From Mobilitalea sp. (GTDB lineage Bacteria; Bacillota_A; Clostridia; Lachnospirales; Lachnospiraceae): a stretch of DNA of 25,101 bases. Below, in pieces: positions 1,114 to 22,400 of the stretch. Positions within the stretch are counted from its first letter, which is position 1. Every line of letters starts with the position of its first letter. The notes below the pieces were generated by a model, which had not been told where the DNA came from, made no database searches, and worked only from the letters and a program-made list of their open reading frames with translations. Where the stretch lies: positions 1-25,101 of the forward strand of contig JARKQP010000353.1 in NCBI GenBank assembly GCA_029974875.1, given 5' to 3'. Both the position numbers and the translations under genes were made by a program.

Positions 1114-1151
1114 ATCAAAACCTCCTATTTCATTGTACTAATAAGGTCCGG

Positions 1152-1204
1152 TTGCCATAAGCCTTCACTGCATGGCAGCTATAAATAAATCACACTTATG
1201 GCAA
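1152..1204. repeat. Inverted repeat element, copy A (TTGCCATAAG arms)
   Basis: TTGCCATAAG at 1152-1161 is matched exactly by its reverse complement at 1195-1204, with a 33-base loop containing a smaller CTGC/GCAG hairpin. The stretch from GGTCCGG at 1145 resembles, with about three differences over 19 bases, the minus-strand sequence at 7131-7149 (copy B). It sits between the SDR start and the E2 stop, in the opposite orientation to copies B and C. There is no T-run, so it is not a standard terminator. Confidence 0.6.
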
Positions 1205-1229
1205 ACGAACCCTAATAGGTAGTTGCGTA

Positions 1230-2582: not shown

Positions 2583-2599
2583 AATTTTTACCTCACAAT

Positions 2600-3574: not shown

Positions 3575-3595
3575 AATATAGTTCTCCTTTCAAGC

Positions 3596-4582: not shown

Positions 4583-4614
4583 TTCTTTTTCCTCCTTAAA
4601 CATTCTTATAAAAT

Positions 4615-5403: not shown

Positions 5404-5424
5404 AAATAACCTCCTTATTAATTT

Positions 5425-6454: not shown

Positions 6455-6985
6455 CTATTGTTCTATGTTCCAGAACATAAATTTTTTAATTATTTCGAAA
6501 TCGTTAATGACGTTATCCCCTTTTATTTTCCAAACACCGGCTTCTTTCACATAGTCCTGTTGGAAATAATATTCTTTTCCACTCTTTTGTTTTTGTATTC
6601 TTTTTATCGATGCCCTGCCCTCATCCACATATTCTGTTTTTGCATATACAAATTCATTAATTCCATCCCCATTAGCCTTTAGATAACTGACGGTCGCGCT
6701 GATTTCATTCACAAAATCTTTCTCATAGGAGCTCAAGACATCCGCGGAATCCTTGCTGGATAGTTCCAATAATTGATTAAATCCATCTTCAATATTTATT
6801 TCTTCATTAAGCATTTGTTGATAAATTAAGTTAGATGCCTTTGCCAGGCCCTCCGGAGAATTAAGTTCTAAATCCGAGGTATAATCGGTACTTGATAATA
6901 TAAACCTCGTCTCCGGTCCACTTACTTTAGAACAGCCTGTTAAAGCAAGTGCCAATATCATGATTATTAGAATACGTTTATACAC
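6455..6985 (-). CDS. Uncharacterised lipoprotein
   Basis: I do not recognise this 176-residue protein. It begins with a short basic region and hydrophobic segment ending in the lipobox ALTGC, so Cys18 is the likely lipidated residue and the mature protein should sit on the outer face of the membrane. The body is acidic and mostly helical in appearance, with a C-terminal part (YYFQQDYVKEAGVWKIKGD) that recalls small beta-rich NTF2-like or DUF-type lipoproteins; that is only an impression. GTG start with GGGAGG six bases upstream. It lies between the sugar-binding lipoprotein gene and the kinase gene in an otherwise catabolic operon, so an accessory role at the transporter or in the envelope is possible. 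Confidence 0.75.
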   Translation of the reverse strand: MYKRILIIMILALALTGCSKVSGPETRFILSSTDYTSDLELNSPEGLAKASNLIYQQMLNEEINIEDGFNQLLELSSKDSADVLSSYEKDFVNEISATVSYLKANGDGINEFVYAKTEYVDEGRASIKRIQKQKSGKEYYFQQDYVKEAGVWKIKGDNVINDFEIIKKFMFWNIEQ

Positions 6986-7168: not shown

Positions 7169-8212
7169 TTATTTCGCTTTCTCAGCCGCTGTCTCAATCA
7201 GTAAATCCACATTTTCAGGTGTAGCTACGATGAAGCCTGTACTGATATAGGAAGGAATGGGGGAGATTCCTGCCGATTTATCATCTTTTGTGAATTTAAT
7301 ATTATTGTGGTTGTAATCATAAAGCATTCTTACACCGTAATAAGTAAAGAAGTGTCTCTTCTGTCCGACTGCAGCCACTAAAGCACCGTCTTTTACTCCC
7401 TGTAAATGCTCAGCTTCTGCATCTACACAGGTTCCATAGATCTGTCCGGTTTTACCGGCTTCCTTAATTGCCTGGGCAATACCGGGGCCGCCTGCGGAAT
7501 CGAAGCCGGCAACAGCAAGTAACTGATTATCACTTTGGATCAGGTTAGCGATTGTGGATGCAACGGTCTGTGCATTAGAGCCGGAATCATATACCTTGGG
7601 CTCTACCGTAATATTGGGATTTAATGCTGCCATGGTATCAATATAACCATTTAAAGCCTGCTGGTTATTATCCGCGCCGGTTACACCGATACATACTGCA
7701 TGCCCGCTCTTTCCTTCCAGGTAAGGAGCCACTGCCTTAGCCTGTTCAACACCCAATTGATACCAGTCGGTTCCGATAAAGCAGATACGGTCACTGTCCG
7801 GCACGTCTGCATCGATGGTTACTACAGGAATCCCTGCTGCCATCGCTTTATCAATGCCTGTTGCCAGTGATGCATCCCAGCCGACTACCATCATACCGTT
7901 AGGCTTCTGTGCAATTTCCTGCTCAATCGCTGCCTGGAAAGCGGGCAGATCCACTTCCTGGGGTCCGATTTTTCTTACTTCTACACCCAGCTGTTCAGCG
8001 ATCAGATCCATACCAATATAGTCATTGTTAACGAATAATGGTAAGGAATTGTACTGGCAAGCCCATGTGTATACTTCTTTTTTGCCATTATCAGCAGCCT
8101 TTGTTCCATCTGTTTGATCCTGGGTCGTAGCTGTATTCTCTTTTGCGCAAGCTGTTAAAATAGACATTACTACAACTAATAAAACCATAACTTTTGATAG
8201 ATTTTTTTTCAT
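7169..8212 (-). CDS. Sugar ABC transporter substrate-binding lipoprotein (RbsB-like, periplasmic-binding-protein type I)
   Basis: A 347-residue exported binding protein. The signal peptide ends in the lipobox LTAC with Cys22 as lipid anchor. The body has the two-lobed sugar-binding fold: PNGMMVVGWDASL and GIPVVTIDADVPDS are the classic ribose/xylose-binding protein segments, and VAGFDSAGGPGIAQAIKEAG belongs to the second lobe. ATG with AGGAG seven bases upstream. It follows the second permease by about 70 bases, so it is the extracellular receptor of the adjacent RbsA/RbsC-type transporter. Its C-terminal FFTYYGVRMLYDYNHN recurs in two other proteins of this window (20672-21682 and 19533-20534), which suggests a common or related ligand. 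Sugar identity unknown. Confidence 0.92.
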   Translation of the reverse strand: MKKNLSKVMVLLVVVMSILTACAKENTATTQDQTDGTKAADNGKKEVYTWACQYNSLPLFVNNDYIGMDLIAEQLGVEVRKIGPQEVDLPAFQAAIEQEIAQKPNGMMVVGWDASLATGIDKAMAAGIPVVTIDADVPDSDRICFIGTDWYQLGVEQAKAVAPYLEGKSGHAVCIGVTGADNNQQALNGYIDTMAALNPNITVEPKVYDSGSNAQTVASTIANLIQSDNQLLAVAGFDSAGGPGIAQAIKEAGKTGQIYGTCVDAEAEHLQGVKDGALVAAVGQKRHFFTYYGVRMLYDYNHNNIKFTKDDKSAGISPIPSYISTGFIVATPENVDLLIETAAEKAK

Positions 8213-8282
8213 ATACCTTCTCCTTTTAATTTTTTATCAATACACAACAAGAATATTTTTATAGACTTTTGTGTTATGACCC

Positions 8283-9299
8283 TTAGCCGACTACCTTTCG
8301 TTTTGACATCTGGGCATCAAGAATTACCGCACCCAGCAATACAAAACCTTCAATGATTTTATATAAATTTGATGGAGCATACGCTATACGCAACCCATTG
8401 GTCAGGCATATCGTGAACAACATACCGAGTACCGCACCACCCATGCTTCCTCTTCCGCCCTTCATACTGATACCTCCAATGACACAGGCAGTAATTACTT
8501 TCAGTTCCCAGCCTGATCCGAAGGTAGCTGCTGAGGCTCCCATCCTTGCTGAAATCAGGATACCTGCAGCGCTGGCAAGAACTGAACTCAATACAAATGC
8601 AAAGGTCTTCATCTGATTGACATTAATGCCGGAAAGGCGGGAGGCTTCGATATTCATTCCAATGTAGTAATACTTTTGGAAAAATGTCGATTTTGCCATC
8701 AATATAGAAAAGAGGATTAATAATACTGCTGCATAATAAACCGGAAGCTGGATACCTAAAAGCTCTGCTTTGCCTATCTTCGTAAATACATCAGGCAAAT
8801 GTCTGACATCAATGCCGCCCCGGGATATACTATAGGAGGCAGTGAAGAGATACTGTGACAGACCATAATAAACCAATCCCAGACCAAGTGTTGCAATAAA
8901 AGAGTTAACACCCACCCGTGATACCAGGGTTCCAATAATAAACCCAAAGAGACAGGCCACGCCCAAGGTGATCAGTATTGCCCAGACCAGCGGAACACCC
9001 AGTACAATCAAGGTTCCAACCAGCATATTGGAGAACGTGACATTATATCCGACGGATAAATCAATCTCACCATTGACAAGCTGGACTGCCATTCCGATAA
9101 CAATAATTGCAGGTATCGAAAATTCCAGCAGTAAAGTAGAGATATTATAACCGGACAAAAAAACAGTAGGATATAGTATGGAATAGGCTATAACATAGAG
9201 AATTATAAAACCTAAGGGAATTACCCACCGGTTTTTAGCAATAAAATCAAGGGAACTGTTACCTATCTTTTTAATATCTAAATTCTTGTGCGTCATCAT
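8283..9299 (-). CDS. Sugar ABC transporter permease 2 (RbsC-like)
   Basis: A polytopic membrane protein of the RbsC/XylH permease family (BPD_transp_2): long hydrophobic stretches, the loop VNGEIDLSVGYNVTFSN, GLGLVYYGLSQ, and the coupling region around EASRLSGINVNQMKTFAFVLS with GASAATFGSGWELKVITACVIGG. I place the start at the middle of three consecutive ATGs (9302, 9299, 9296), seven bases after GGAG. The longer frame beginning at 9335 would run into the ATPase coding sequence. The product is 338 residues. It pairs with the other permease (11038-12009), so the transporter is probably built from two different permease chains. The last codons of the ATPase gene end immediately upstream, showing tight translational coupling. 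Confidence 0.92.
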   Translation of the reverse strand: MMTHKNLDIKKIGNSSLDFIAKNRWVIPLGFIILYVIAYSILYPTVFLSGYNISTLLLEFSIPAIIVIGMAVQLVNGEIDLSVGYNVTFSNMLVGTLIVLGVPLVWAILITLGVACLFGFIIGTLVSRVGVNSFIATLGLGLVYYGLSQYLFTASYSISRGGIDVRHLPDVFTKIGKAELLGIQLPVYYAAVLLILFSILMAKSTFFQKYYYIGMNIEASRLSGINVNQMKTFAFVLSSVLASAAGILISARMGASAATFGSGWELKVITACVIGGISMKGGRGSMGGAVLGMLFTICLTNGLRIAYAPSNLYKIIEGFVLLGAVILDAQMSKRKVVG

Positions 9300-9312
9300 C
9301 ATTCCTCTCCTT

Positions 9313-10800
9313 CTACTGCATAATTCCCGAAGCATATTTCATAATTGATTGCTCCGTAGCTTTATCGCCGCTGAGTTCTCCGATGATCTGCCCATTATGC
9401 ATGATATATATTCTGTCGCTGATTGCTAAAACCTCCGGTAAGTCTGATGAAACAACAATAATACTGGTTCCGGCAGCGGTAAGGTCGCGCAGTATCTGAT
9501 AGATTTCGGCCTTTGCACCTACATCCACACCTCTGGTAGGTTCATCTACAATTAATATCTTCGGGTTCACCGCCAACCATTTTGCCAGCACGACCTTTTG
9601 CTGATTTCCGCCGGAAAGGTTAACAACCTTTTGCTGGATGCTGGGTGTTACGATATTAAGCTTCTGCTTATAGTCCTCCGATATCCGGTTGATTGCTTTA
9701 TGGTCCAGGTTCATGCCGACACTGAGTTTCTTTAAGCTGGCGGAAGCAATGTTCGCATGTATTGCCATCTCCAGGAACAACCCATGTTCTTTACGGTCTT
9801 CCGGCAAATAACCAATTCCATTATTGATTGCGTCCTTAACATTTTTGATTTTTACCTTATTACCTTCTATCCATATTTCACCGGAGGTGATTGGATCAGC
9901 TCCGAACAAGGCTCTCATAACTTCTGTCCGCCCTGCCCCGGCAAGGCCTGCAAAGGATATGATTTCTCCCTTTTTAACCTTAAAATTTATATCCTTAAAT
10001 TTGCTGGAATTCATGCCCTTGCATTCCAGTACATATTCCTCCGGTAATTTACGTTCAATCCGGTCAAATAATAATTCACGTCCTACCATCTTATTGACAA
10101 TCCAGTCATTATCAATGTTATGGACTTCCTCTGTAGCTATATGGCTTCCATCCTTAAACACAGTAACCTTATCCGCAATCTGGAAGATCTCAGCAAGACG
10201 GTGGCTTATATAAATAATCGCCATTCCCTGTTCCTTTAATTTACGCAGCAGGGAAAACAGCGCCCCTACTTCCTTTTCGGTTATGGTCGCCGTAGGCTCA
10301 TCCAGTATCAGAACCTTCGGGTTGACCGACAGAGCCTTGGCAATTTCAATCATCTGCTGCATCGCAGGAGAAAACTGGTCAATCATCTTCTTGGAATCTA
10401 TCTGCAATCCTAATTTCAGCAATAATTCATCCGCATCATCATACAGCTTCTTCCACTTGATAAAGGACAGACGGCCGATCGGCTGCCTTCCGGCGTATAT
10501 ATTTTCCGCTACATTTAATCCATACACCAGGGAACGTTCCTGGTAAACAATTGAGATCCCCATCTCGTTCGCCTGTTTTTGGTTTGATATATTGATTTTT
10601 GCACCGTTTAAGTAAATGTCACCCTGATCCTGCTTTAAGGCTCCTGCCAAAATATGCATCAGTGTCGACTTTCCAGCCCCGTTTTCACCACAAAGCGCAT
10701 GTATCTCGCCTTCATTTATGCTTAGGTCCACACCCTTTAAAGCACGCACGCCCGGAAATTCTTTTACTATATTGTTGGCCTGTAATACCGTATTTGACAT
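9313..10800 (-). CDS. Sugar ABC transporter ATP-binding protein with two nucleotide-binding domains (RbsA/MglA type)
   Basis: A tandem ATPase of roughly 495 residues that drives monosaccharide import. First domain: Walker A GENGAGKST at about 38-46, the degenerate signature FSPAMQQMIEIAKAL, Walker B VLILDEPTA. Second domain: a modified P-loop GLAGAGRTE, intact signature LSGGNQQKVVLAKWL, Walker B ILIVDEPTRGVD. This asymmetry is normal for RbsA/MglA/XylG. The start is uncertain: ATG codons at 10836, 10812 and 10800 are all in frame. I prefer 10800 because family homology begins within a few residues (VLQANNIVKEFPGV), though AGAGGG lies 13 bases upstream, farther than ideal. Permease 2 follows directly. 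The gene is separated from permease 1 by a structured spacer. Confidence 0.92.
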   Translation of the reverse strand: MSNTVLQANNIVKEFPGVRALKGVDLSINEGEIHALCGENGAGKSTLMHILAGALKQDQGDIYLNGAKINISNQKQANEMGISIVYQERSLVYGLNVAENIYAGRQPIGRLSFIKWKKLYDDADELLLKLGLQIDSKKMIDQFSPAMQQMIEIAKALSVNPKVLILDEPTATITEKEVGALFSLLRKLKEQGMAIIYISHRLAEIFQIADKVTVFKDGSHIATEEVHNIDNDWIVNKMVGRELLFDRIERKLPEEYVLECKGMNSSKFKDINFKVKKGEIISFAGLAGAGRTEVMRALFGADPITSGEIWIEGNKVKIKNVKDAINNGIGYLPEDRKEHGLFLEMAIHANIASASLKKLSVGMNLDHKAINRISEDYKQKLNIVTPSIQQKVVNLSGGNQQKVVLAKWLAVNPKILIVDEPTRGVDVGAKAEIYQILRDLTAAGTSIIVVSSDLPEVLAISDRIYIMHNGQIIGELSGDKATEQSIMKYASGIMQ

Positions 10801-10903
10801 ATTTATGTTCATGCCCTCTACCGCACAAATCACCATGAAAGTGCTGGCATGAACCCGGTCCCCCCTTCGTTCATTAATTTTAATTCTTTCAACCTTGACG
10901 TCA

Positions 10904-11021
10904 TGCTGCTGTAGGCAGCACTAACAATCAGTGGGAAGAACGCTGCGCTTGCGTTCTTCCTGTGTGAGACATGGAAATTCTTAGCCTGCGTATTTTGCAG
11001 GTTTAGGATTTCTTCTCACAC
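10904..11021 (-). ncRNA. Multi-hairpin structured intercistronic RNA element
   Basis: Within the roughly 200-base gap between permease 1 and the ATPase, three hairpins follow in a row on the transcript. The first has an outer stem GTGTGAGA/TCTCACAC (10962-10969 with 11014-11021) and an inner CCTGC/GCAGG stem with partly paired flanks. The second is a perfect 10-bp stem GGAAGAACGC/GCGTTCTTCC (10934-10943 with 10951-10960, 7-base loop). The third is TGCTGC/GCAGCA (10904-10909 with 10915-10920). A small CACT/AGTG stem (10919-10933) competes with the third. There is no T-run, so it is not a plain terminator. It could be a regulatory leader for the ATPase gene, an RNA-processing site or a dispersed repeat. 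I cannot match it to a known riboswitch class. Confidence 0.5.
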
Positions 11022-11037
11022 TTGCCTCCATGATTAA

Positions 11038-12009
11038 CTACATTTTCTTCTTAGAAATGATGATATCAAGTATAATCGCTATGATTAGGATTACGCCTGT
11101 GATTGTCGGCTGCAAATCCGGCGGCACATTAGCGATCGTTAAGGCATTGTTCAATATCGCTATGAACAGCGCTCCCATCGCCGCTCCAGCCATTGTACCG
11201 GCTCCGCCTGTAAACCTGACACCACCGATTACAGCTGCTGTTACCGCCCTAAGCTCAACTCCCGTCCCAACATTCGGGATAGCCGTATTAAACCGCATCG
11301 CGGATATGATACCGCCGAGGCCTGCTAAAAATCCTGCTATAACAAATGCAGCAATCTTTACTTTGGAGGTATTAATGCCGGATAGCTTTGCCGATTTCTG
11401 ATTAACACCGATATAGTAATACTGGCGGAAATACCTTGTACTGGAGATCAGGACCGCAAAAATGACCAATGCAACTACCATATACATTACAGGCATCTGG
11501 ATACCCAGGATTTTGGTTTGGCCCAAAGCCTTAAATACCTTATCGGGGAAATCAGTCCAGCCTGTTCCTGAAAGAATTGTCGCTGTTCCCAGAAATATCA
11601 TTCCGGTAGCCAGTGTGGCTATAAAGGAAACAACATTTAATTTAGCAACAATAATTCCATTTATGTAACCGCATAGCATGCATATTGCCAGGGATATTAT
11701 AATCGCAAATACTACGGGCATATCATTGACTATCATCAGCCTTCCGCAGATAATTGCCCCCAATACCATGTTAGATCCTAAAGAGAGGTCAATTTCGCCA
11801 AGGATCAGAATCAATGTAATGGCAATTAAAATCATTATTTCTGAAGACATATTCAGTAGAATAATTGCGAAATTTTCGAACGTCCCGAAGGTCGTAGGAA
11901 ATATCATGGAATAGATGATGGCAAAGACCGTTGTCAGTATCAATAACGCTAACGCCCTTTGTGTTGATATAAAGTGTAGAAAACTTTGCTTATGTGCTTT
12001 TTCAGTCAT
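11038..12009 (-). CDS. Sugar ABC transporter permease 1 (RbsC-like)
   Basis: A polytopic permease of the RbsC family, about 323 residues from ATG 12009, which has AAGGAAAGG eight bases upstream. The in-frame GTG at 12018 would overlap that site. Family blocks: ILGEIDLSLGSNMVLGAII, GMIFLGTATILSGTGW, KSAKLSGINTSKVKIAAFVIAG and VGTGVELRAVTAAVIGGV. It is clearly paralogous to permease 2 (shared EIDLS, AKLSGIN/SRLSGIN and ELK/RVTACVIGG blocks). It is the first gene after the chemoreceptor terminator, so it should head the uptake and catabolism operon. Two non-identical permeases with one double ATPase resemble the Lsr (AI-2) and Rha (rhamnose) importers in layout, but layout alone does not name the sugar. 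Confidence 0.92.
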   Translation of the reverse strand: MTEKAHKQSFLHFISTQRALALLILTTVFAIIYSMIFPTTFGTFENFAIILLNMSSEIMILIAITLILILGEIDLSLGSNMVLGAIICGRLMIVNDMPVVFAIIISLAICMLCGYINGIIVAKLNVVSFIATLATGMIFLGTATILSGTGWTDFPDKVFKALGQTKILGIQMPVMYMVVALVIFAVLISSTRYFRQYYYIGVNQKSAKLSGINTSKVKIAAFVIAGFLAGLGGIISAMRFNTAIPNVGTGVELRAVTAAVIGGVRFTGGAGTMAGAAMGALFIAILNNALTIANVPPDLQPTITGVILIIAIILDIIISKKKM

Positions 12010-12060
12010 ATTCAGCACCTTTCCTTTCTGAATTTCGTTCCTATGTCTAAATCTTGTAAC

Positions 12061-12257: not shown

Positions 12258-14324
12258 TTATTCAATAATAAATTGTTCCATTGACTGGTTGATTTTTGAT
12301 ACTATCTTTTTAAACTCCTCCGACATTGCAGCTAAATTCTCAGTTATAGCCATGTGCTGCTGCCCACTGGCAAGAACCTCCTCCGTTATTGCTGCTGTTT
12401 CTTCGGATATTGATACGATTGTCGATATTGCACTGACGGCATCCTCCTGTATATTCTCAACCTCGGCAAAGGTCTCATATACATTCTTTACTTTATCCAG
12501 GATGGAGTCCATATTCCGGATGATCTCCCAGAAGATGCCTGTGGCATCCTTAACAGCCTTTTCCTGCTGTGTATAGATTTCGTCTCCGCTGACAATCTTA
12601 TGCTCCATTTGAGCCGAAGAGTTATACAGGCGGTTAATAATCCCTGATATCTTCATCGCGGCATCACTCGACTGCTCCGACAGCTTTCTTACCTCGTCTG
12701 CTACCACCGCAAAGCCTCTGCCGGCTTCTCCTGCCCTGGCTGCCTCAATCGCTGCATTAAGGGACAATAAGTTCGTCTGTTCACTGATGTTGTTTATTAA
12801 ATCTATAATTTGGAGTATCTCGCTGAACTCACTGACTAAGAAGCTTATTTCCTTCTTTACTTCATCGAATAATTGGACTGTTGTGGTCGTTGACTGATTT
12901 AATATTTCCATGGATTCTCCGGCATACCTGCTGGTCTCCTTCGTCCGGGCGGTCGATTCCAGCACTTCATGAAAATGCTCCTCTGTGACAGCCAGCTTTT
13001 TAATCAGGTTATCAATCACCTTTGCCGTTTTTTCTGCCTCCTCAGCCTGCTCACCGGAGCCTCTGGCTACAGTCCCAACAATACTGATAATCTCCTTCAT
13101 CGAAGCAGCCGATTCACCCGCTATGGAATTAAGCTCCGTTGAATCTGCATTAATCAGCGTAGTTAATGCTTTCGTATCACGGATTAAATTCTTCATATTA
13201 CCCGTCATTTCATTAAAGCTCTTTGACAGGCCGCCTATCTCATGACGTCCCTCCAGCTCAGAGCAAACGGTCAGGTTCCCTCCCTGTGCCTCCTTCATCT
13301 TATTGCGGATATAGTTAATCGGCCTTGTGATATGGCTGGATATATATAATCCCAGCACCACTGATGCCAGGGCCGCAATCAGGGAAATCCCCAGTGAGAA
13401 TACCTGTATCCTGCGAATGTCGGTGTAAATCAATCTGGTAGGCAGCTCATCTACAATCATCCATCCGTTGGAGCATTCCTGATAGATTACCATTGCCTCC
13501 ACCGCCACCTCGTCTTTTGTGATAAAGACGCCGGATACAGCAGCTTCCGGTTCACTTTCGCTAATCCTTACGGAGCTGATCTGAGGATAAACCCCAAGCT
13601 TTGCATCCATCGTTTCAAGCTGTTGATTGCTGAGCATAATCTGCCCCTTGGCGTCTATCAGGGAAAGCGTATTGGTATCAGCCCCTTCCTCCCCGGCATA
13701 AATAGCCTGATTAAAATAACCGGGGCTTACTTCAATTACCATGACACCCACGGATAATTGTCTCATCAGATAGAAGTTCCCGGTATCAAACAGGTTATAA
13801 AACCAGCTGACATTATTATTATTGGTTTGAATGATGTTATAGGCTTCACTTTCATAGAAGCTGCTGCAAAAATCCTCTTCATGATAGATCGGATTCGTTG
13901 CTTTCCCACTGATTACCTCATCCGGCTGAATATAAAAAATTGAAACAATATCTGAATTAGTAAACATAATGGACTGGATTGCATTATAAATGACGGTCTC
14001 CCTTTCCGTTTTCATAGCCTCAGGGCTTTCATAATCCTCCTTATTTTTATCCAGGGCTTTATTCATTTCCGTATTAGCCAACAGCATTTTTGAGATATCA
14101 CTGATTGATTTGAGGCTTAGGTTAATGATATCTGCCGTCTTGACCACTGCGTTCAAGTTAGCCTTTTCCACCTCATATTGAACAGTACCTACCATCTGAT
14201 TAACCAGCAGTATAACCACGACGGCCAGAGGCAAGATGGTGACGCCGATGAAGGAGATGATTAACTTTGCTTTTATGGAGAATTTCTCTGCCTTCTTTCG
14301 CCGAAGCCTTTTCATTTTCCTCAT
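12258..14324 (-). CDS. Methyl-accepting chemotaxis protein
   Basis: A transmembrane chemoreceptor of 688 residues from ATG 14324, which has AGGAGG six bases upstream. A longer open frame to 14468 exists but runs through the preceding terminator and is not real. Order: basic N-terminus, TM1 (about 20-42), an extracellular Cache-like sensor region (about 45-305), TM2 (about 308-329), HAMP (about 330-382), then the coiled-coil signalling domain with the conserved tip [20 protein letters not shown] (515-534) and [13 protein letters not shown]. It should pass ligand information to CheA/CheW. Its own promoter and terminator set it apart from the sensory operon and the uptake operon. The position between them suggests a role in swimming towards the same sugar, perhaps via a binding protein; that is inference. 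Confidence 0.93.
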
Positions 14325-14424: not shown

Positions 14425-14452
14425 TTTTTAGGAATTACATGGTAATGGGCAG

Positions 14453-14499
14453 AACAAAAACAGGGCAACTGGTTCGATTTATTTATCGCCAGTTGCCCT
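14453..14499 (-). terminator. Strong intrinsic terminator after the response regulator gene
   Basis: AGGGCAACTGG (14462-14472) pairs perfectly over 11 bp with CCAGTTGCCCT (14489-14499). On the minus strand this is followed by TGTTTTTGTT. The loop itself contains a short CGAT/ATCG pair. It ends the sensory operon. Confidence 0.88.
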
Positions 14500-14578: not shown

Positions 14579-16162
14579 CTACCTTGAATTTTCGCTTCTG
14601 TATTTAGCCGGTGTTACACCGGCAGCACTTATAAATGCTTTAGAGAAATGACTTCTGTCTCCGTAGCCAACCAATTCCGCTATTTTATCAATTGGAATGG
14701 CGGTATCCGTTAAAAGGTTTTTTGCATTTTTTATCCGGATTTCCGAGATATACTGTTTAAAATTCTTATCGGTCTGCTGTAAAAACAACTGACTCAGATA
14801 GCTGGGATTAATGTAATACTCGTCCGCCAGATCAATCAATTTTATATTCTTATAATATTCCTCTTCCAAGCGCTTGATAATCTTATCTATGATATCCTTA
14901 CCTGTATCAGAAGCACCTTGGTTCATATAATCACAAACCTGTTTTGCCCGGCTGGTCACAATCTGCTGAAAATCATCATAGGTGATGCACTCCCAGAAAA
15001 AAAGCTCTATCCTTCTGTCAGAAAGATCTGAATTCTCATAATTTCTTGATATCTTTAAGGTATTAATGATACAAAACATAATTTCCAAGGAAAGGGAGGC
15101 TACCTTCGAATATATAATACGGTTCGATACCACCTCCGCATAAATACTATCAATGATATGTTTGACATTCTTATAATCCCCAGCCTTCAAATATGCCTGC
15201 AGCAGGTTCTTCTTATTATCTAAAAGGTGGTAATTATTATGTTCAATTCTGGCAAAATCCTCGTAGGATATCACCGGATAGGCTGGATAAGCAATTTTTT
15301 GCGATATAACTGTACAGGCCTCCGAATAAGCATCGGGTATATTCTCAAAGCTCATACACTTTTTCCCATAACCGATGTAAGCATCAATATGCAATACCTC
15401 GCTGATGGATTTAATAGCATTTTTAAGGATCAAAGGGATATTATCAGGTATTGTTCCATAGAGCACGGCAGAAAAGGAGTGTCCGTTATGATCCGTTACA
15501 AAGGCCACACAGGGAAGCTGTTTAGAGACTGTTTCTTCGAAAAAGCCCGTTGTTAATTGTACAATATCCTTTTCCATGGAATGATTAGCCTGGAAGCTGT
15601 CCCGCTCTATCCTCACCCTGCAAACCAAATACTCTTTTGCCGAAACAAAATCCGTATATTGCTCGAAGAGGACCCTATCCTGCCCCTGGCCTTTTACAAG
15701 CTTCGTAAATAAATTATCCTTATAGATCACTTCATTCTCAGAAACCTTCTGCTTCAGGTGATTTAAAATTTGCTGCTGCTTTCTTTTAATGTCTATCTTA
15801 TCGATTAATTTATAAACCGAATTTTGAAGATCAATATCCTCAATTGGCTTTAATAAATAATCGCATACCCCCAGCCTTAGGGCCTTTTGCGCATAAGCAA
15901 AATCCTGGTGTCCGCTGATAATAATAAAATATAAATCCTTATTTCGCATTAACGCATTTTCAATATACATAAGTCCATCCAGCTTAGGCATTTTGATATC
16001 CGTAATTACTATATCGGGCTGGCATTCCTCCGTTAAGGCCAAAGCCTCTTCGCCATCCGAGGCTTCTCCTACAATCTCAGCCTCCGGGACAAGTCTGAGA
16101 ATCTTATTACGGATGCCCCTGCGTATTATATTTTCATCATCTATTATAAGAATCCTTATCAT
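14579..16162 (-). CDS. YesN-type response regulator with AraC DNA-binding domain
   Basis: A 527-residue regulator from ATG 16162. The frame extends upstream to a TTG but family starts look like MIRILIIDDE, so I chose that ATG despite a weak ribosome site. Receiver domain (about 1-120): acidic pocket Asp8/Asp9, phosphoacceptor Asp55 in ITDIKMP, Lys105 in LLKPI. A long middle region of no clear motif follows, then a C-terminal AraC/XylS domain (about 425-527) with two helix-turn-helices, including LADEYYINPSYLSQLF and the signature IAELVGYGDRSHFSKAF. It is the partner of the kinase upstream. By analogy with clostridial sugar systems it should activate the nearby uptake and catabolic operon when phosphorylated. 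Confidence 0.93.
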   Translation of the reverse strand: MIRILIIDDENIIRRGIRNKILRLVPEAEIVGEASDGEEALALTEECQPDIVITDIKMPKLDGLMYIENALMRNKDLYFIIISGHQDFAYAQKALRLGVCDYLLKPIEDIDLQNSVYKLIDKIDIKRKQQQILNHLKQKVSENEVIYKDNLFTKLVKGQGQDRVLFEQYTDFVSAKEYLVCRVRIERDSFQANHSMEKDIVQLTTGFFEETVSKQLPCVAFVTDHNGHSFSAVLYGTIPDNIPLILKNAIKSISEVLHIDAYIGYGKKCMSFENIPDAYSEACTVISQKIAYPAYPVISYEDFARIEHNNYHLLDNKKNLLQAYLKAGDYKNVKHIIDSIYAEVVSNRIIYSKVASLSLEIMFCIINTLKISRNYENSDLSDRRIELFFWECITYDDFQQIVTSRAKQVCDYMNQGASDTGKDIIDKIIKRLEEEYYKNIKLIDLADEYYINPSYLSQLFLQQTDKNFKQYISEIRIKNAKNLLTDTAIPIDKIAELVGYGDRSHFSKAFISAAGVTPAKYRSENSR

Positions 16163-16230
16163 TTTAATACCCATGCCTTTCAATTTTCTTAATGACCTAC
16201 TCAAAAAAACTGAATAGGCCTGAATATAAA

Positions 16231-16255
16231 GGTTGAAAATGTTCTTTTTTCAACC
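16231..16255 (-). terminator. Weak hairpin between kinase and regulator genes
   Basis: GGTTGAAAA (16231-16239) and TTTTCAACC (16247-16255) form a 9-bp stem with a 7-base loop. On the minus strand it is followed by TTTATATTC. It could reduce read-through from the kinase into the regulator gene, but it is AT-rich and may be only an attenuating or stabilising hairpin. Confidence 0.35.
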
Positions 16256-16296
16256 TGCCTCCATCCCTCCAAGCTGCCCAACTAACACCTGACCTC

Positions 16297-18147
16297 TTAC
16301 TCATGTAATTTTGCCGGAAGTACCAAGGTTACCTTAGTTCCAACATTTCGTGTACTTTGTATTGTCATTCCGTATTTATCACTGTAATAGAGTTTGATAC
16401 GGTCATTTACATTCTTTAAAGCTATACCGCTTCCTGAACTGCGGCTATCCATCTCAGATTTTTGATAAAGGCTGGCTTGCAAATTCAGCAATTCCTCCTT
16501 ATCCATGCCGATACCGTTATCCTCCACCTCAAGAATCAGGTTTGTCTTGTGTAATCTGGCTGAGACCTTAATAATACAGCTTCTTCCGCTCTTCTCCACA
16601 CCATGGATAATCCCATTTTCAACCAATGGCTGTAATACTAGCTTGACTGTCTCATAACGGTACAGCTCCTCCGGGATCTCATAAATGACCGTCAGTTTAC
16701 TTTCTAAGCGCAGCTGCTGGATATATACATAATTCTTTACGTGCAAAACCTCTTCTTCAAGTGAAACAAAGCCTTGTCCCTTACTAATGCTGTATCTGAA
16801 AATTCTTGCCAGCGCCCGGCAGGAGCCTGAGATCTCATCCGCACCTTTTTCTTCTGCCATAATATCCATGATCTGCAGGGTATTATATAAAAAGTGGGGA
16901 TTAATCTGGGCCTGCAAAGCGCTAAGCTCCGCCTCTTTCCTTAAAATCTCAGTCTGGTATACTCTTTGGATCAAATTCTTAATACGGGAAAGCATCTTAT
17001 TAAAGCTCAGGCTTAATTCTCCGATCTCATCCTTACTCTTGACCTCTATCTGCAAATCAAAGTCTCCCGATTCTGCCATCTTCATCCTGCGCTTTAATAC
17101 GGAGATAGGTTCGGTTAAAGAGTTACTCATTAAAACGGAAATCACTATGGAGGACAGGATACATAATATGATGGTGTACACCAGCGCCAGCTCAAAGCTG
17201 TTAATTCTTGAAAACAGTAAGTCGGTTGGTATGATGCTCAATACGGTCCACCCTGTATTCGCCGAGGTATTATAGATAATAAGTTCTTCTCCCGAGCCTG
17301 TTTTACGTATCATATGCCCTTCTTTTTTCTCCAGCAGTTCACTGACATAATCGTGCTGGAATTGGGAAGATATATATTCCGGCTGCGTATGATAGATTAC
17401 CGTTTTGTTGTCATCAATAATAACCACACTTGGCTGGTCAGCTGAAATACTTTTCAACAGATTCGAAAAAATACCGATATCCATCTCTATCATAAAGTAA
17501 CCTATATTGTTTTGTGTTTTAATATCATTAATCTCTGTGATATAACCAAAAACCTTTTTATTGCTGCCTTCCGAAATAATATCCGTCTGCAGATAGGTTG
17601 GTATAATCAGGCTTCTCTTATTTAATTTTTTCATATTCTGAAACCATTTTTTCCGGGTGAAATTATAATCTGTTACCAGGGAGTTACCCGCTCCCTTCAT
17701 ACTATATACCTCACCGCTGTAGCTGAAGATATGAAGAGATTCTATATTCGTAAAATTGGCAATGGCATTTTCGATAATTTCATTTACTTTCTCATCATCC
17801 GCAATTTTCTCACGGATAGGGCGCGAGGCATCCTTATTCAATATTTCCTGCAGCGTCTCATCCATACCGATCTCAGCAGATATATTGGTGAGCTGGATAA
17901 AGGTATTATCGATGTTATTATTAATCTGGTCCAGAGTATTCGATACATATTCCGAAACCTCATTTTTAAGGGTCATGATTGAGATATTGAATACAAAAAT
18001 AGCTATAATCACCAGCGGAAAGAGAGTTAATAAGAGGTAGGATATCGTAAGCTTAGTTCTCATATTCCTTAAGGCAAGTGCACCCTTGATCTTACTGATA
18101 TTAGCTTTTACTGAGTTCCTCCATTTTGCAAAATGCTTCCGTCCCAT
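16297..18147 (-). CDS. YesM-type sensor histidine kinase
   Basis: A 616-residue membrane kinase from ATG 18147, with a G-rich Shine-Dalgarno (GGGGG) about seven bases upstream; the TTG at 18165 is less likely. Order: TM1 (about 34-55), a large extracellular Cache-type domain (about 60-290), TM2 near 300 (VYTIILCILSSIVISVLMS), HAMP, then the LytS/YesM-type His_kinase segment QINPHFLYNTLQ with phospho-His418, and the ATPase domain with N-box LVENGIIHG (Asn511), VEDNGIGMD and GSGIALKNV. It should phosphorylate the regulator encoded just downstream. In this family extracellular binding proteins often act as co-receptors, and three such genes lie immediately upstream in the same operon. Confidence 0.93.
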   Translation of the reverse strand: MGRKHFAKWRNSVKANISKIKGALALRNMRTKLTISYLLLTLFPLVIIAIFVFNISIMTLKNEVSEYVSNTLDQINNNIDNTFIQLTNISAEIGMDETLQEILNKDASRPIREKIADDEKVNEIIENAIANFTNIESLHIFSYSGEVYSMKGAGNSLVTDYNFTRKKWFQNMKKLNKRSLIIPTYLQTDIISEGSNKKVFGYITEINDIKTQNNIGYFMIEMDIGIFSNLLKSISADQPSVVIIDDNKTVIYHTQPEYISSQFQHDYVSELLEKKEGHMIRKTGSGEELIIYNTSANTGWTVLSIIPTDLLFSRINSFELALVYTIILCILSSIVISVLMSNSLTEPISVLKRRMKMAESGDFDLQIEVKSKDEIGELSLSFNKMLSRIKNLIQRVYQTEILRKEAELSALQAQINPHFLYNTLQIMDIMAEEKGADEISGSCRALARIFRYSISKGQGFVSLEEEVLHVKNYVYIQQLRLESKLTVIYEIPEELYRYETVKLVLQPLVENGIIHGVEKSGRSCIIKVSARLHKTNLILEVEDNGIGMDKEELLNLQASLYQKSEMDSRSSGSGIALKNVNDRIKLYYSDKYGMTIQSTRNVGTKVTLVLPAKLHE

Positions 18148-18217
18148 TTTAACTACCCCCGTCAAACGCCTTGTAACCTTGTTTTATTGCAACCGTAATA
18201 TGACCTGTAAAACCATA

Positions 18218-19489
18218 TCATTGAAACGTATATTTTGAAGCAAATATCTCCTGGAATATGTCTGCCAGATCCTTTGCATTAATCAAGCCGGCTATAAAAT
18301 CCTTCGCGCTTTTCTCAAGCTGGTATTTTTGGTCCGAAGTGATATATATATAATAGATGCTGAGATTTTCATTATCCCTGATTGGTTCCCACAATTCATT
18401 ATATTGCAGATAACTGGAATCTGTCTGCAGAATGGTTGGATAGGACATGGTACTTCGTCCATATAACCCGGCGATTTCAGGACGGCTTATAAATTCCAAG
18501 AACAGCTTTGCTTCTTTCATATTTTGTGTTTCCCGGTTGATACCTATCAAAACCGATAAATTATTTGTGATAGTCTTAGCATCTTCCTGATCGGAATATG
18601 GAATTAAAAATACACCCGGATCACATACCTTCTGGAAATCCTCTTTCACCATATTCAACGACCGGTCGGGCGCTATCAACATAGCTGATTTTGCGCTCTT
18701 AAAGTAATCAAAGGCTTGATGGTAGGTTAAATTTATGGCGTCCGGGCTGATATAACCATTATCGACCAGTGCTTGCGTATCATTAAATAAATCCATTAGC
18801 TCTCCTGTGTCAAACCGTATTTTCCCAGTCTTTAGGTCCGTCTGCCAATTTTCATCCATCATAAAATTAATGATACGTAAAAAATATATATAGGAAGCGT
18901 CTTCTGTATCCCTCGCTCCAAGGACAATAGGGTTTACATCATTCTGTTTTAGTATTTGACAAACCTTTAGGAACTCTTCATAGGTTTCCGGTATTTCAAG
19001 ATTATATTTATCAAATAGGATTTTATTATACCAAATGCCAAAATACTCAGCATTATAGGATATTGCATAATCCTTATTATAAGTAATCGCCTGTATTTCT
19101 TTTCTAACCTTGGGTTTATAATTGGCAATAAACTTCTCCCCACTTAAGTCCAATAATTTATTCTGTGCGCAGTATTTCAGAAGATCCTGGGAATCTATTC
19201 CGAATACGTCCAATTTTTCACCCATCAGTATCTTCTTCTGAAGTATTTCATTATAGGAGGATAAATTATAGTGTTGGTAATCCACCGTAACATTAGGGTA
19301 CAGCTCGTTAAATTTGGCAAATATCTCGTCGGGGAAATAAACATAGTGCATGAAAGAGATCTCCACCTTCGATTTATTCGTATCATTTTCTTCGGTGAAG
19401 TCAGATAGTTTTAAAGAGTTATAAAGCAAAACACCCAATAAAATTGTTAATAAAAATGCTGAGATTACATATAATGCACTTCTTCTCAT
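18218..19489 (-). CDS. Membrane-tethered family-1 extracellular solute-binding protein (sensory type)
   Basis: A 423-residue binding protein of the MalE/UgpB type from ATG 19489, with GGAGG five bases upstream. The N-terminus MRRSALYVISAFLLTILLG is an uncleaved-looking anchor (about 5-25) with no lipobox cysteine, so it is tied to the membrane rather than a free transport lipoprotein. The body shows the family order: VEISFMHYV start, FAKFNELYPNVTVDYQ, DVFGIDSQDLLKY, YNAEYFGIWYNKILFDK and later AMLIAPDR. It lies between a type I sugar-binding protein gene and the histidine kinase gene. No permease or ATPase of its own family is nearby, which points to sensing. Its ligand may differ from that of the two other tethered proteins; unknown. 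Confidence 0.85.
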   Translation of the reverse strand: MRRSALYVISAFLLTILLGVLLYNSLKLSDFTEENDTNKSKVEISFMHYVYFPDEIFAKFNELYPNVTVDYQHYNLSSYNEILQKKILMGEKLDVFGIDSQDLLKYCAQNKLLDLSGEKFIANYKPKVRKEIQAITYNKDYAISYNAEYFGIWYNKILFDKYNLEIPETYEEFLKVCQILKQNDVNPIVLGARDTEDASYIYFLRIINFMMDENWQTDLKTGKIRFDTGELMDLFNDTQALVDNGYISPDAINLTYHQAFDYFKSAKSAMLIAPDRSLNMVKEDFQKVCDPGVFLIPYSDQEDAKTITNNLSVLIGINRETQNMKEAKLFLEFISRPEIAGLYGRSTMSYPTILQTDSSYLQYNELWEPIRDNENLSIYYIYITSDQKYQLEKSAKDFIAGLINAKDLADIFQEIFASKYTFQ

Positions 19490-19532
19490 TGTTACCTCCA
19501 CTATGCCGCCAGGCAATGTGCTTTTCCATTAA

Positions 19533-20534
19533 TTATTTAAAGAAGTCATCGATATTCGTTTTATCGATCTCAATGATTCCGGTATTAATTTTATTAGGTA
19601 TATTAGTAACATCGTTGGTTCTGTCATTCTTAGTAACATTTAATCCACTATGATTATAATCATATAGCAAATCAAGTCCATAATAAACCATCAAATCATA
19701 TTTCTGCCCTATCAGCTTTTGTACCAGTCCGCTCTTCACCAGCTTTAAGTGGTCAGTGGTCATTCCAACACACACCACCTTAATCTGATCTTCTAAACCA
19801 AGTTCCTTTAAGGCTTGGACAATACCCAGTCCGCTATTCGTGTCAAAACCCGCTATCGCATCAATATCGTATTCCTGTACAAGCTTTTTGGTAACCCGTT
19901 CCGCCTCTTTGATTGTTCCCATATCATCATAGCCTCCAAGCACATAGATGTCCTCATAGACTGCCATAGTATCCTGGAATCCTGAAAATGCTTTATCAGA
20001 ACTATCAGAGCCTACCATACCGAGCATGGCAACCGTCCCCTCTTGTTGAATCAGCCCGGCAATCGCTTCTGCTTGATTAACACCAATATCATACCAATCC
20101 GGGCCGATATAGGCTAATCTTTTGCTGTCAGGCAAATCAGAACCAACGGTAACGATTGGGATACCGGCTTCTGCAGCTTGATTAACATAGGGCGTCAGAC
20201 TGAGTGCCGAACCATATATAACAATCCCATCCGGCGTATTATCCTGGGCTTCGATTAACAGCTTTGTCTGGGCAACGATATCAAATTTCTCCGGAGCAAG
20301 CGCATATGCTTTTACGTTAAAATCATGTTTGAAGGCTTCTATCCCTTCCTTTTCCATCTTTGTATACTGCCCTTTATGTCCTGAAGCGATGTAAACATAT
20401 TCCTCTCCGTCAAAAAGAATAAAGCCGATATCATCTCCGGTCTTTTTAAATTGACTAATAAAATAAACATTCATGATCATTGATAATACGAGAAAACCTA
20501 TTAGTAATATCTTTACCCTGCGATTTATTTTCAC
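19533..20534 (-). CDS. Membrane-tethered type I sugar-binding protein (sensory, paralogue 2)
   Basis: A 333-residue protein of the RbsB/XylF fold with one N-terminal hydrophobic helix (about 8-28) and no lipobox cysteine, so it should be an anchored extracellular receptor. Sugar-binding blocks: PDGIVIYGSALSL, GIPIVTVGSDLPDS, AYIGPDWYDIGVNQAEA and AGFDTNSGLGIVQALKELG. The C-terminal MVYYGLDLLYDYNHSGLN matches the same region of the protein at 20672-21682 and of the transport lipoprotein at 7169-8212. GTG start with AAAGGA upstream. This architecture resembles the XylFII component of the clostridial XylFII-LytS-YesN xylose system. It lies 43 bases before the family-1 tethered protein gene in the same operon. 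Confidence 0.88.
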   Translation of the reverse strand: MKINRRVKILLIGFLVLSMIMNVYFISQFKKTGDDIGFILFDGEEYVYIASGHKGQYTKMEKEGIEAFKHDFNVKAYALAPEKFDIVAQTKLLIEAQDNTPDGIVIYGSALSLTPYVNQAAEAGIPIVTVGSDLPDSKRLAYIGPDWYDIGVNQAEAIAGLIQQEGTVAMLGMVGSDSSDKAFSGFQDTMAVYEDIYVLGGYDDMGTIKEAERVTKKLVQEYDIDAIAGFDTNSGLGIVQALKELGLEDQIKVVCVGMTTDHLKLVKSGLVQKLIGQKYDLMVYYGLDLLYDYNHSGLNVTKNDRTNDVTNIPNKINTGIIEIDKTNIDDFFK

Positions 20535-20627
20535 TTATAATCCTTTCAGCATCTCATCATAAATTATTTTTTATACCCTTTTGTTAACTAAAACCAGTAT
20601 TTCCACGTAATATTATCCTCACGGCAT

Positions 20628-20675
20628 CTAGTGTACTGTCCCACACAGCTTTAGATAAATGAGACAGTACACTAG
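20628..20675 (-). repeat. 17-bp hairpin overlapping the stop codon of the first sensory gene
   Basis: On the minus strand CTAGTGTACTGTCTCAT pairs with GTGGGACAGTACACTAG: 13 perfect pairs, then four more with two G-U wobbles, around a 14-base loop. The TAG stop codon (20672-20674) is inside the stem. No T-run follows, so I read it as an intercistronic RNA hairpin that could protect the upstream message or lower expression of the next gene. It could also be a remnant of a small mobile repeat. Confidence 0.6.
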
Positions 20676-21682
20676 TATATGATTTCATCTATATTGGAGC
20701 TGTCCACCTCAATAATACCGGTGTCTACAGTCTCGGGAATCAAGAGGGCTTTCATCCCTGGATTCTCCTCTGTAGCAGTCAAAGCGCTTCTGTTATAATT
20801 GTATAACAGCTGTAATCCATAGTAAGTAAATAATTCTCTCTTTTGTCCTACTAATTTTTGTACAGCTCCACTTTTAACCAGTTCAAGATGCGCTTCGGCG
20901 ATATCCACGCAGGTTACCTTAAGGTCACCTATCCGGCCCAGTTCTTCCAGGGCAGCGGCAATACCCGGCCCGCTATTGGAATCAAATCCGGAGATTCCTG
21001 CAATATCGGGATAATCCTCCAGCATCTTCTTGGTAAGCTCCTTGGCCAGCTCGGAATTACTTTGATCATCAAACTCTTCTAAAACAACGATATCACTATA
21101 GTTCTCCATAACACTCCGATAACCGTCATATGCCTCCTGCATATTTACTAATTCACCCATGCCGATCATGGCTACAATACCTTTTCCGCCAATCAATCTT
21201 ACCATTGCCTCTGCTTGTCTGACACCGATGTCAAACCAGTCCGAACCTACAAAGGCCAGGCGCTCGCTGTCAGGGAAATCCACATCAACCGTTAATATCG
21301 GTATCCCTTGTTCAACTGCCATATTAATATAAGGAATGAAGCTGGGGTCTGTGACACAGACCAATATTCCATCCGGTTTTTTATTAATGGCTTCAATCAG
21401 CAGCTTTTTCTGCTCCTCGACATTATATTTTTCCGGTGCCATAATCTGTACCTTAGCCCCATACTCTTCTGCAAACTGATTCATCCCTTTTACATCATGA
21501 TTAATGATCATCGGGTCATCTTTAAAGACAGCAACATATATATATTCATCAGCTTCCTCCGTTTCATCCTTCGGCTCCGGTCTCCCCGTACCCATACCGG
21601 AGTTTATCAGACAGTAAATATTAAAAGCTGCTGAAAATGAAATCAATAAATAGAATGCAATGAGAACAAATCTTTTCGTCAT
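20672..21682 (-). CDS. Membrane-tethered type I sugar-binding protein (sensory, paralogue 1)
   Basis: A 336-residue RbsB/XylF-fold protein and first gene of the sensory operon. N-terminal hydrophobic helix (about 4-27); a Cys at 24 lacks the leucine of a lipobox, so anchoring by the helix is more likely than lipidation. An acidic linker (about 36-46) precedes the binding domain with PDGILVCVTDPSF, GIPILTVDVDFPDS, AFVGSDWFDIGVRQAEA and SGFDSNSGPGIAAALEELG. The C-terminal FTYYGLQLLYNYNRS is shared with the paralogue next door and the transport lipoprotein. ATG with GGAGG five bases upstream. It probably reports extracellular sugar to the histidine kinase. A 17-bp hairpin overlaps its stop codon. 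Confidence 0.88.
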   Translation of the reverse strand: MTKRFVLIAFYLLISFSAAFNIYCLINSGMGTGRPEPKDETEEADEYIYVAVFKDDPMIINHDVKGMNQFAEEYGAKVQIMAPEKYNVEEQKKLLIEAINKKPDGILVCVTDPSFIPYINMAVEQGIPILTVDVDFPDSERLAFVGSDWFDIGVRQAEAMVRLIGGKGIVAMIGMGELVNMQEAYDGYRSVMENYSDIVVLEEFDDQSNSELAKELTKKMLEDYPDIAGISGFDSNSGPGIAAALEELGRIGDLKVTCVDIAEAHLELVKSGAVQKLVGQKRELFTYYGLQLLYNYNRSALTATEENPGMKALLIPETVDTGIIEVDSSNIDEIIY

Positions 21683-22034: not shown

Positions 22035-22376
22035 TCACTTTTCCTTAATTTTTGCAGCCTTCGCAAGAAACACACTTGCACTCTGCAAGGTATCGCTGTC
22101 GGTAGACTCCAGTAATATTTTGAGAATATCCGTACCGAGAACTTCCTTGGGCTTGCGTTCCTCCGAGCCGAAAACAATATAGTCCAATGACAAATCAAGA
22201 CGCCCGGCAATTCTGATTAAGGTATCAAGTGACGGTTTTTGAAATGCGTTTTCAATTTTTGTATAGGAGCTTGCCGATAGGTCTATCACTTCGCAAAAGC
22301 TCTCCTGCGTAAATCCCAGCGCTTCACGGCGGGCTTTAATACGCGCGGCCATTTCCTTGATCTGAATCTTTGTCAA
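22035..22376 (-). CDS. XRE-family helix-turn-helix transcriptional regulator
   Basis: A small DNA-binding protein of 113 residues. I place the start at TTG 22376, eight bases after GGAGG. The upstream in-frame GTG at 22385 overlaps that Shine-Dalgarno and is less likely. The N-terminal Cro/CI-type domain reads MAARIKARREALGFTQESF, then the recognition helix region LSASSYTKIENAFQKPS and DTLIRIAGRLDLSLDYIVFG. The short C-terminal helix region has no ligand or protease motif. It is divergent from the c-di-GMP gene, and a 17-bp palindrome lies in the shared upstream region, so autoregulation and control of the neighbour are plausible. A separate role in the sugar locus is possible but not indicated. 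Confidence 0.88.
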   Translation of the reverse strand: MTKIQIKEMAARIKARREALGFTQESFCEVIDLSASSYTKIENAFQKPSLDTLIRIAGRLDLSLDYIVFGSEERKPKEVLGTDILKILLESTDSDTLQSASVFLAKAAKIKEK

Positions 22377-22400
22377 GATATTCACCTCCGTCTGTCTAAT

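What the first reader, a model, noticed from the sequence alone, without database searches (positions are those of the whole stretch)
14579..21682. A sensory operon with three tethered binding proteins feeding one YesM/YesN pair
Known clostridial systems such as XylFII-LytS-YesN use one anchored binding protein with one kinase and one regulator. Here two type I sugar-binding paralogues and one family-1 binding protein, all with N-terminal membrane helices and no lipobox, precede a single kinase and regulator in one transcript unit. This suggests multi-ligand or graded sensing, or a hetero-oligomeric receptor. It is the best candidate in the window for an undescribed system.
Basis: partly seen in the sequence, partly recalled or inferred. 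Interest (0 to 1): 0.72.

Follow-up and report, generated by a model that had tools for sequence, protein, structure and literature searches.

The report
Sugar sensor with three tethered receptors
A bacterium related to clostridia appears to feed signals from several sugar-catching proteins fixed to its membrane into one sensor switch; a two-protein core of this arrangement recurs in other clostridia, and the closest described system uses two such proteins, not three.

Summary
SBP1, SBP2 (PF13407), SBP3 (PF01547), a YesM kinase and a YesN regulator form one minus-strand run closed by a strong terminator. The three SBPs have an N-terminal hydrophobic helix and no lipobox; the neighbouring transporter has its own lipobox SBP4. 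Other genomes show a recurrent core of one tethered PF13407 plus one PF01547-type SBP near YesM/YesN. Of 9 tethered SBP1-type genes found, 9 have the partner (its anchor readable, without lipobox, in 8), in differing gene orders; the one lipobox hit has none. The window's extra copy looks old: SBP1 and SBP2 form separate clades, and three other contig lengths hold one of each plus SBP3. The Asp aligned with RbsB Asp89 is lost in 10 of 11 SBP2-clade proteins, so SBP2 probably binds differently or not at all. Best reading: a multi-receptor sugar sensor working like LevQRST but with a dCache kinase; a new variant of a known kind. Contact with the kinase is untested.

The parts
20672..21682 (-). 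SBP1: tethered type-I sugar-binding protein (PF13407), pocket Asp residues kept
   Evidence: nearest solved relatives 6sw4, 3g1w, 2h3h and XylFII entries 5xss/5xsj/5xsd
20630..20673 (-). hairpin with 11-nt perfect arms overlapping the SBP1 stop codon, between SBP1 and SBP2; no U-run
   Evidence: (-28 kcal/mol, z -4.8); a 10-nt arm is absent from the 41 loci then held
19533..20534 (-). SBP2: tethered paralogue of SBP1 (46%), own clade, two acidic pocket positions replaced by Gly
18218..19489 (-). SBP3: tethered family-1 (PF01547) binding protein; helix 3-27, domain from ~42
16297..18147 (-). YesM-type histidine kinase: dCache_1, HAMP, His_kinase, HATPase_c
16230..16256 (-). weak hairpin between kinase and regulator
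   Evidence: z -1.4
14579..16162 (-). YesN-type response regulator (receiver + AraC HTH)
14451..14499 (-). terminator-like hairpin with U-run closing the five-gene unit
   Evidence: -31 kcal/mol, z -5.6; sequence
12258..14324 (-). methyl-accepting chemotaxis protein, separate unit after the terminator
7169..12018 (-). Rbs-type sugar transporter (permease, ATPase, permease) with its own lipobox binding protein SBP4 (7169-8212); likely regulon (inferred)
   Evidence: no NCBIfam equivalog reaches its cut-off

Best explanation
A multi-receptor sugar-sensing system. Three binding proteins, each held to the membrane by an uncleaved N-terminal helix, sit around the extracytoplasmic dCache domain of one YesM kinase dimer. 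SBP1 (monosaccharide-type) and SBP3 (oligosaccharide-type fold) are the ligand receptors of a conserved core. SBP2 is an old SBP1 paralogue with a changed pocket, acting as a modulating or structural partner, or binding a different ligand. Ligand-dependent closure changes kinase activity; phosphorylated YesN then switches on the adjacent Rbs-type transporter and sugar-degrading genes. Shown by sequence: gene set, hydrophobic N-termini without lipobox, conserved linkage, separate SBP1 and SBP2 clades, pocket changes. Inferred: uncleaved anchoring, one transcript, complex formation, direction of signalling, target genes, ligands.
For: Pairing: A2 searches gave 10 distinct genomes at E<=1e-95 (5 of 397; 2 of 391; 2 of 196; 4 of 392; the sets overlap). 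9 of the 10 hits are tethered, and 9 of 9 have a PF01547-type gene in the same neighbourhood (adjacent in 7; same gene run in G434 and its near-twin G002). The partner's N-terminus is readable, hydrophobic and without lipobox in 8; in G166 it is cut off. YesM and YesN are both adjacent in 7 of 9; the other two lie at contig ends. The one lipobox hit (G546) has neither in the 20 kb read. Gene order differs (HK-RR-SBP1-SBP3; HK-RR divergent from SBP1-SBP3 or SBP3-SBP1), so linkage outlived rearrangement. Triple: SBP1, SBP2 and SBP3 homologues share longest-contig lengths 36407, 508564 and 78340, and the tree puts SBP1 and SBP2 in separate supported clades. Transport has its own lipobox SBP4. In 18 close SBP3 homologues the anchor is more conserved (0.80) than the domain (0.69) or linker (0.53). 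Precedents: LevQRST (PMC3043104) and CuaDSR (PMC10384115).
Against: No contact between any SBP and the kinase was tested; the kinase model is unusable (pLDDT 49). G001 carries SBP3-HK-RR-MCP-transporter with a 69%-identical kinase and no SBP1-type hit at E<=1e-60 other than its lipobox transport SBP, so SBP1/SBP2 are not needed by every such kinase. SBP1 and SBP2 anchors are less conserved than their domains (0.48 and 0.51 against 0.81 and 0.74), and over all 25 SBP3 rows the anchor's lead shrinks (0.65 against 0.61). Hairpins inside the run could uncouple expression. The triple on other contigs rests on equal contig lengths, not on read gene order. The module loci share ancestry and are not independent.
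Confidence: 0.6

Rival explanations
1. Ordinary three-component sensing plus passengers: only one SBP (SBP3 or SBP1) works with the kinase; the others are retained paralogues with little role.
For: G001 has SBP3-HK-RR alone; SBP2 lost pocket acids; CuaDSR works with one SBP (PMC10384115).
Against: SBP1 and SBP2 clades look old and both are kept on three other contig lengths; 9 of 9 tethered SBP1-type genes keep a PF01547-type partner.
Confidence: 0.2
2. The tethered SBPs mainly serve chemotaxis through the MCP gene just downstream, or feed the transporter.
For: MCP lies next to the run in the window and in L001; an SBP can dock on a chemoreceptor (maltose-binding protein and Tar, stated in a passage of PMC9769921).
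Against: No MCP was seen in the stretches read of the other module loci, while YesM/YesN stay linked; a terminator separates the MCP; the transporter has its own lipobox SBP.
Confidence: 0.08
3. The dCache domain of the kinase senses a small ligand itself and the SBPs only tune sensitivity, as CuaS still responds without CuaD.
For: dCache_1 found in the kinase, 63 bits over a 45-bit cut-off, and in 4 of 5 related kinases tested; CuaSR without CuaD still responded (PMC10384115).
Against: Conserved SBP linkage suggests more than tuning; no ligand is known for this dCache domain.
Confidence: 0.12

Closest known systems
LevQRST four-component system (Streptococcus mutans; PMC3043104, abstract and passages)
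   Same: two membrane-associated sugar-binding proteins, one kinase, one regulator; SBPs apparently dedicated to signalling
   Different: two not three SBPs; LevS predicted with up to 5 TM segments and little exposed, against a dCache ectodomain here; no functional ABC transporter near LevQRST
XylFII-LytS-YesN (Clostridium beijerinckii)
   Same: PF13407-type sensing SBP, kinase, YesN; SBP1 matches chains 5xss/5xsj/5xsd (5XSJ is the LytS-XylFII entry per PMC9769921 passages)
   Different: one SBP; LytS ectodomain is a four-helix bundle (PMC9769921 passage), here dCache
CuaDSR (Ruminiclostridium cellulolyticum; PMC10384115, sections named in the report)
   Same: family-1 sensing SBP, kinase and YesN/AraC regulator; a separate SBP for transport
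   Different: CuaD is a predicted lipoprotein; a single sensing SBP
Arabinose-type systems of Geobacillus and Parageobacillus (AraP/AraS names recalled; 6sw4 and 6swj are labelled arabinose binding protein and histidine kinase)
   Same: best solved relative of SBP1 and, for the kinase core 412-611 only, the one solved relative at E<=1e-5; PMC13068155 passage notes a non-lipoprotein PF13407 protein beside YesM-YesN
   Different: one sensing SBP (recalled)

Membership tests
LevQRST-type four-component system | two or more membrane-tethered SBPs linked to one kinase and one regulator | tested here: met
   by sequence; linkage in other genomes
LevQRST-type four-component system | kinase with several TM segments and little exposed domain | tested here: not met
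   kinase has a dCache_1 ectodomain; two flanking hydrophobic segments read by eye, no TM predictor run
LevQRST-type four-component system | sequence kinship of the SBPs with LevQ and LevT | not tested
   Lev sequences were not fetched
LevQRST-type four-component system | SBPs required for induction | not testable with these tools
   needs mutants
XylFII-LytS-YesN three-component system | tethered PF13407 SBP without lipobox | tested here: met
   SBP1, SBP2; that XylFII itself is so anchored is recalled
XylFII-LytS-YesN three-component system | four-helix-bundle kinase ectodomain | tested here: not met
   dCache_1; LytS fold from PMC9769921
XylFII-LytS-YesN three-component system | a single sensing SBP | tested here: not met
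   three in the run
YesM/YesN two-component family | His_kinase PF06580 + HATPase; receiver + AraC HTH | tested here: met
   the names YesM/YesN rest on this domain make-up (recalled)
Transport SBP of an Rbs-type ABC importer | lipobox anchor | tested here: not met
   SBP1-3 have none; SBP4 has (by sequence)

The most novel reading that the evidence does not exclude
One kinase dimer is the hub of a hetero-oligomeric receptor that integrates two chemically different sugars through two unlike folds (SBP1 type I and SBP3 family 1), while SBP2 is a binding-poor pseudo-receptor that pairs with SBP1 and sets its gain: a five-component logic gate for sugar mixtures, built on a four-component core that recurs across clostridia.
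Probability: 0.25. Interest if true: 0.72.

Novelty: new variant of a known kind. Interest (0 to 1): 0.5.

Why it matters
If right, clostridia combine two unlike binding proteins, sometimes plus a pocket-changed third, on one kinase, so a single gene switch could read a sugar mixture rather than a single sugar. The natural variants (SBP3 alone, SBP1+SBP3, SBP1+SBP2+SBP3) on related kinases give a ready series for testing how many receptors a kinase can read.

Tried and rejected
Rejected: recent tandem duplication of SBP1/SBP2 (one search puts them in separate supported clades). Rejected: transport role for SBP1-3 (no lipobox; SBP4 present). No Rfam family reached its gathering score in the window. 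A 10-nt arm of the hairpin between SBP1 and SBP2 was not found in the 41 loci then held, so no repeat-element family was established. Kinase fold prediction failed, so no fold search was done with it. The fold searches of SBP3 gave RafE and chitin-, xylo- and raffinose-type binders, leading rows at 16-19% identity: fold only, no ligand. The viral collection held no relative of A1. Ligand from neighbouring enzymes: ribokinase above its cut-off, an SDR just above one subfamily cut-off, an Hyi-like isomerase below cut-off, and an E1/E2 dehydrogenase of which E1-beta alone exceeds a cut-off; no pathway named. Literature: 10 searches; no listed title or abstract start described a three-SBP kinase system or the PF13407+PF01547 pair. 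Only open-licence papers are held, and three listings were partial: one search showed 20 of 374, 20 of 59, 10 of 6,276.

Rows dropped: P0146 (lipobox, 28%) from A1; A2 used 48 of the 120 listed (207 found) SBP1 hits plus the window's SBP2; P0012 and P0156 (truncated starts); the tree took 36 chosen homologues plus 9 window and locus rows; one search took the first 62 of 120 SBP1 hits. The SBP2 clade of 11 leaves out the sister pair P0157/L026_10, of which L026_10 keeps the Asp. The genome searches with A2 scored only 5 to 10 candidates per genome, so misses are possible.

Full report
What is there. On the minus strand, five genes follow each other: SBP1 (21682-20672), SBP2 (20534-19533), SBP3 (19489-18218), a YesM-type kinase (18147-16297) and a YesN-type regulator (16162-14579). 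Pfam confirms PF13407 for SBP1 and SBP2, PF01547 for SBP3, dCache_1 + HAMP + His_kinase + HATPase_c for the kinase and receiver + AraC-type HTH for the regulator. Each gene has a plausible ribosome-binding site (read by eye). Gaps are 137, 43, 70 and 134 bp. A hairpin of -31 kcal/mol followed by a U-run closes the unit at 14499-14451, so the chemotaxis receptor gene downstream is probably separate. A -28 kcal/mol hairpin without a U-run lies over the SBP1 stop codon, and a weak hairpin between kinase and regulator; either could set unequal dosage. The single transcript is therefore likely but not shown.

Anchors. None of the three SBPs has a lipobox; uncharged hydrophobic runs are 29, 21 and 23 residues. 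A strict AxA motif after the hydrophobic core was found in 0 of 11 SBP1-clade, 2 of 10 SBP2-clade and 0 of 25 SBP3-family proteins (P0012 and P0156 left out for truncated starts, P0146 for its lipobox). By a simple pattern, lipoboxes occur in 5 of 62, 2 of 14 and 1 of 26 proteins of the three homologue lists. The SBP3 model (pLDDT 90.5) shows a helix at 3-27, pLDDT under 50 at 27-38 and the first domain strand at 42. In 18 close SBP3 homologues the anchor is more conserved (0.80) than the linker (0.53) and the domain (0.69); over all 25 rows the values are 0.65, 0.43 and 0.61; in SBP1 and SBP2 the anchor (0.48, 0.51) is less conserved than the domain (0.81, 0.74). Many SBP1- and SBP2-type helices hold S-x3-N (31 of 62 and 10 of 14). 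Cleavage of SBP1 is not excluded.

A conserved core. Homologues of SBP1 were sought with alignment A2 at E<=1e-95 in four overlapping sets of whole genomes: 5 of 397, 2 of 391, 2 of 196, 4 of 392, ten distinct genomes in all. The sets were centred on genomes already known to hold relatives, and only 5 to 10 candidates per genome were scored. Nine of the ten hits are tethered; G546 has a lipobox SBP beside a transporter and no kinase pair in 20 kb. All nine have a PF01547-type gene in the same neighbourhood: adjacent in G136, G041, G088, G387, G166, G003 and G997, and in the same gene run in G434 and its near-twin G002. The partner's N-terminus is readable in eight, hydrophobic and without lipobox; in G166 the contig begins inside the gene. 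YesM and YesN are both adjacent in seven; G166 and G002 are cut by contig ends. Partner families were checked by Pfam in L003, L024, L026 and L040; elsewhere by the A1/A2 profiles or BLAST to window proteins. Gene order differs between loci, so linkage survived rearrangement, but these loci share ancestry and are not independent. A lipobox SBP lies with the transporter in eight loci looked at (L003, L024, L025 by eye, L026, L040, L041, L044 and G001's L035); the G997 stretch held no transporter. Among the loci read, only the window and L001 have the MCP neighbour. The module is uncommon: between 1 and 5 tethered hits per set of 196 to 397 genomes.

A natural variant. In G001 (L001, L028) the kinase is 69% identical to the window's and is preceded by SBP3 alone; the genome has no SBP1-type hit at E<=1e-60 other than the transporter's lipobox SBP. 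So SBP3 with the kinase may suffice, and SBP1/SBP2 may be modulators. Of the 6 of 397 genomes hit with the SBP3 alignment A1 at E<=1e-45, G136, G387 and G088 have the pair, G001 has SBP3 alone, and G343 and G182 have lipobox SBPs beside other YesM-like kinases.

The third protein. Searches with SBP1, SBP2 and SBP3 list homologues whose longest contigs have identical lengths: 36407, 508564 and 78340 for all three; nine lengths are shared between the SBP1 and SBP3 lists. The tree (45 rows, midpoint root) gives separate supported clades for SBP1 (12 rows, 100/99) and SBP2 (11 rows, 100/99), each containing members from those contigs. The duplication is thus older than the split of these lineages and both copies were kept. 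Equal contig length is indirect evidence: gene order there was not read.

Pockets. With E. coli RbsB as ruler, the residue aligned with RbsB Asp89 is Asp in 12 of 12 SBP1-clade, 8 of 8 and 13 of 13 other homologues and 2 of 2 SBP4-type proteins, but Asp in only 1 of 11 SBP2-clade proteins (Gly 5, Glu 4, Val 1). The residue aligned with Asp215 is Asp in 7 of 11 and Gly in 4 of 11 including the window; the Gln235 position is kept in 10 of 11. L026_10, a sister of this clade, keeps both Asp. That these RbsB residues bind sugar is recalled. SBP2 therefore has a changed pocket: different ligand, or none.

What it works like and what it is. The nearest published case found is LevQRST, where two SBPs feed one kinase, LevQ appears to be needed for complex integrity and LevT modulates (PMC3043104; abstract and found passages). 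CuaDSR shows an SBP touching its kinase in two-hybrid tests (PMC10384115; abstract, introduction, first part of results, and discussion). XylFII-LytS has a four-helix-bundle ectodomain (PMC9769921 passages), unlike the dCache domain here. A passage of PMC13068155 notes a non-lipoprotein PF13407 protein beside YesM-YesN in Parageobacillus. So the window works like LevQRST/XylFII systems, but the kinase feature of each is not met, and it is best filed as a new variant.

Limits. No complex could be predicted; the kinase model is unusable. Ligands are unknown: SBP3 has the fold of oligosaccharide binders, leading rows at 16-19% identity; SBP1 is nearest to an arabinose-binding protein entry. The neighbouring genes (a ribokinase above its cut-off, an Hyi-like isomerase below cut-off, an E1/E2 dehydrogenase of which only E1-beta passes a cut-off, and an SDR) do not name a pathway, although L026 keeps a related transporter and E1/E2 genes.

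Noticed in passing
window 349-6333 and L026 1-2445: The catabolic genes (ribokinase, hydroxypyruvate-isomerase-like protein, E1-alpha, E1-beta, E2 dehydrogenase genes, SDR) suggest an unusual sugar pathway with a TPP/lipoate dehydrogenase; E1/E2 genes are kept near a related transporter in G136.
   Followed up: partly
window 20630-20673: Strong hairpin with perfect 11-nt arms at the SBP1 stop codon without a U-run; origin and role unknown.
   Followed up: partly
window 12258-14324: MCP gene next to the sensor run, also in L001, suggesting chemotaxis to the same sugar.
   Followed up: no
window 6455-6985: 176-aa probable lipoprotein without a Pfam family, with a 33%-identical counterpart after SBP4 in L026.
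   Followed up: no
P0013 and P0020 (contig length 2470), P0036 and P0044 (11257): Pairs of SBP1-type proteins sharing a contig length, so doubled type-I SBPs may have arisen more than once.
   Followed up: no
window 22035-22385 and 22734-24725: Small protein that reads like an XRE-type regulator (no NCBIfam match at 1e-30) and a GAF-GGDEF-EAL protein upstream of the run; link to it unknown.
   Followed up: no
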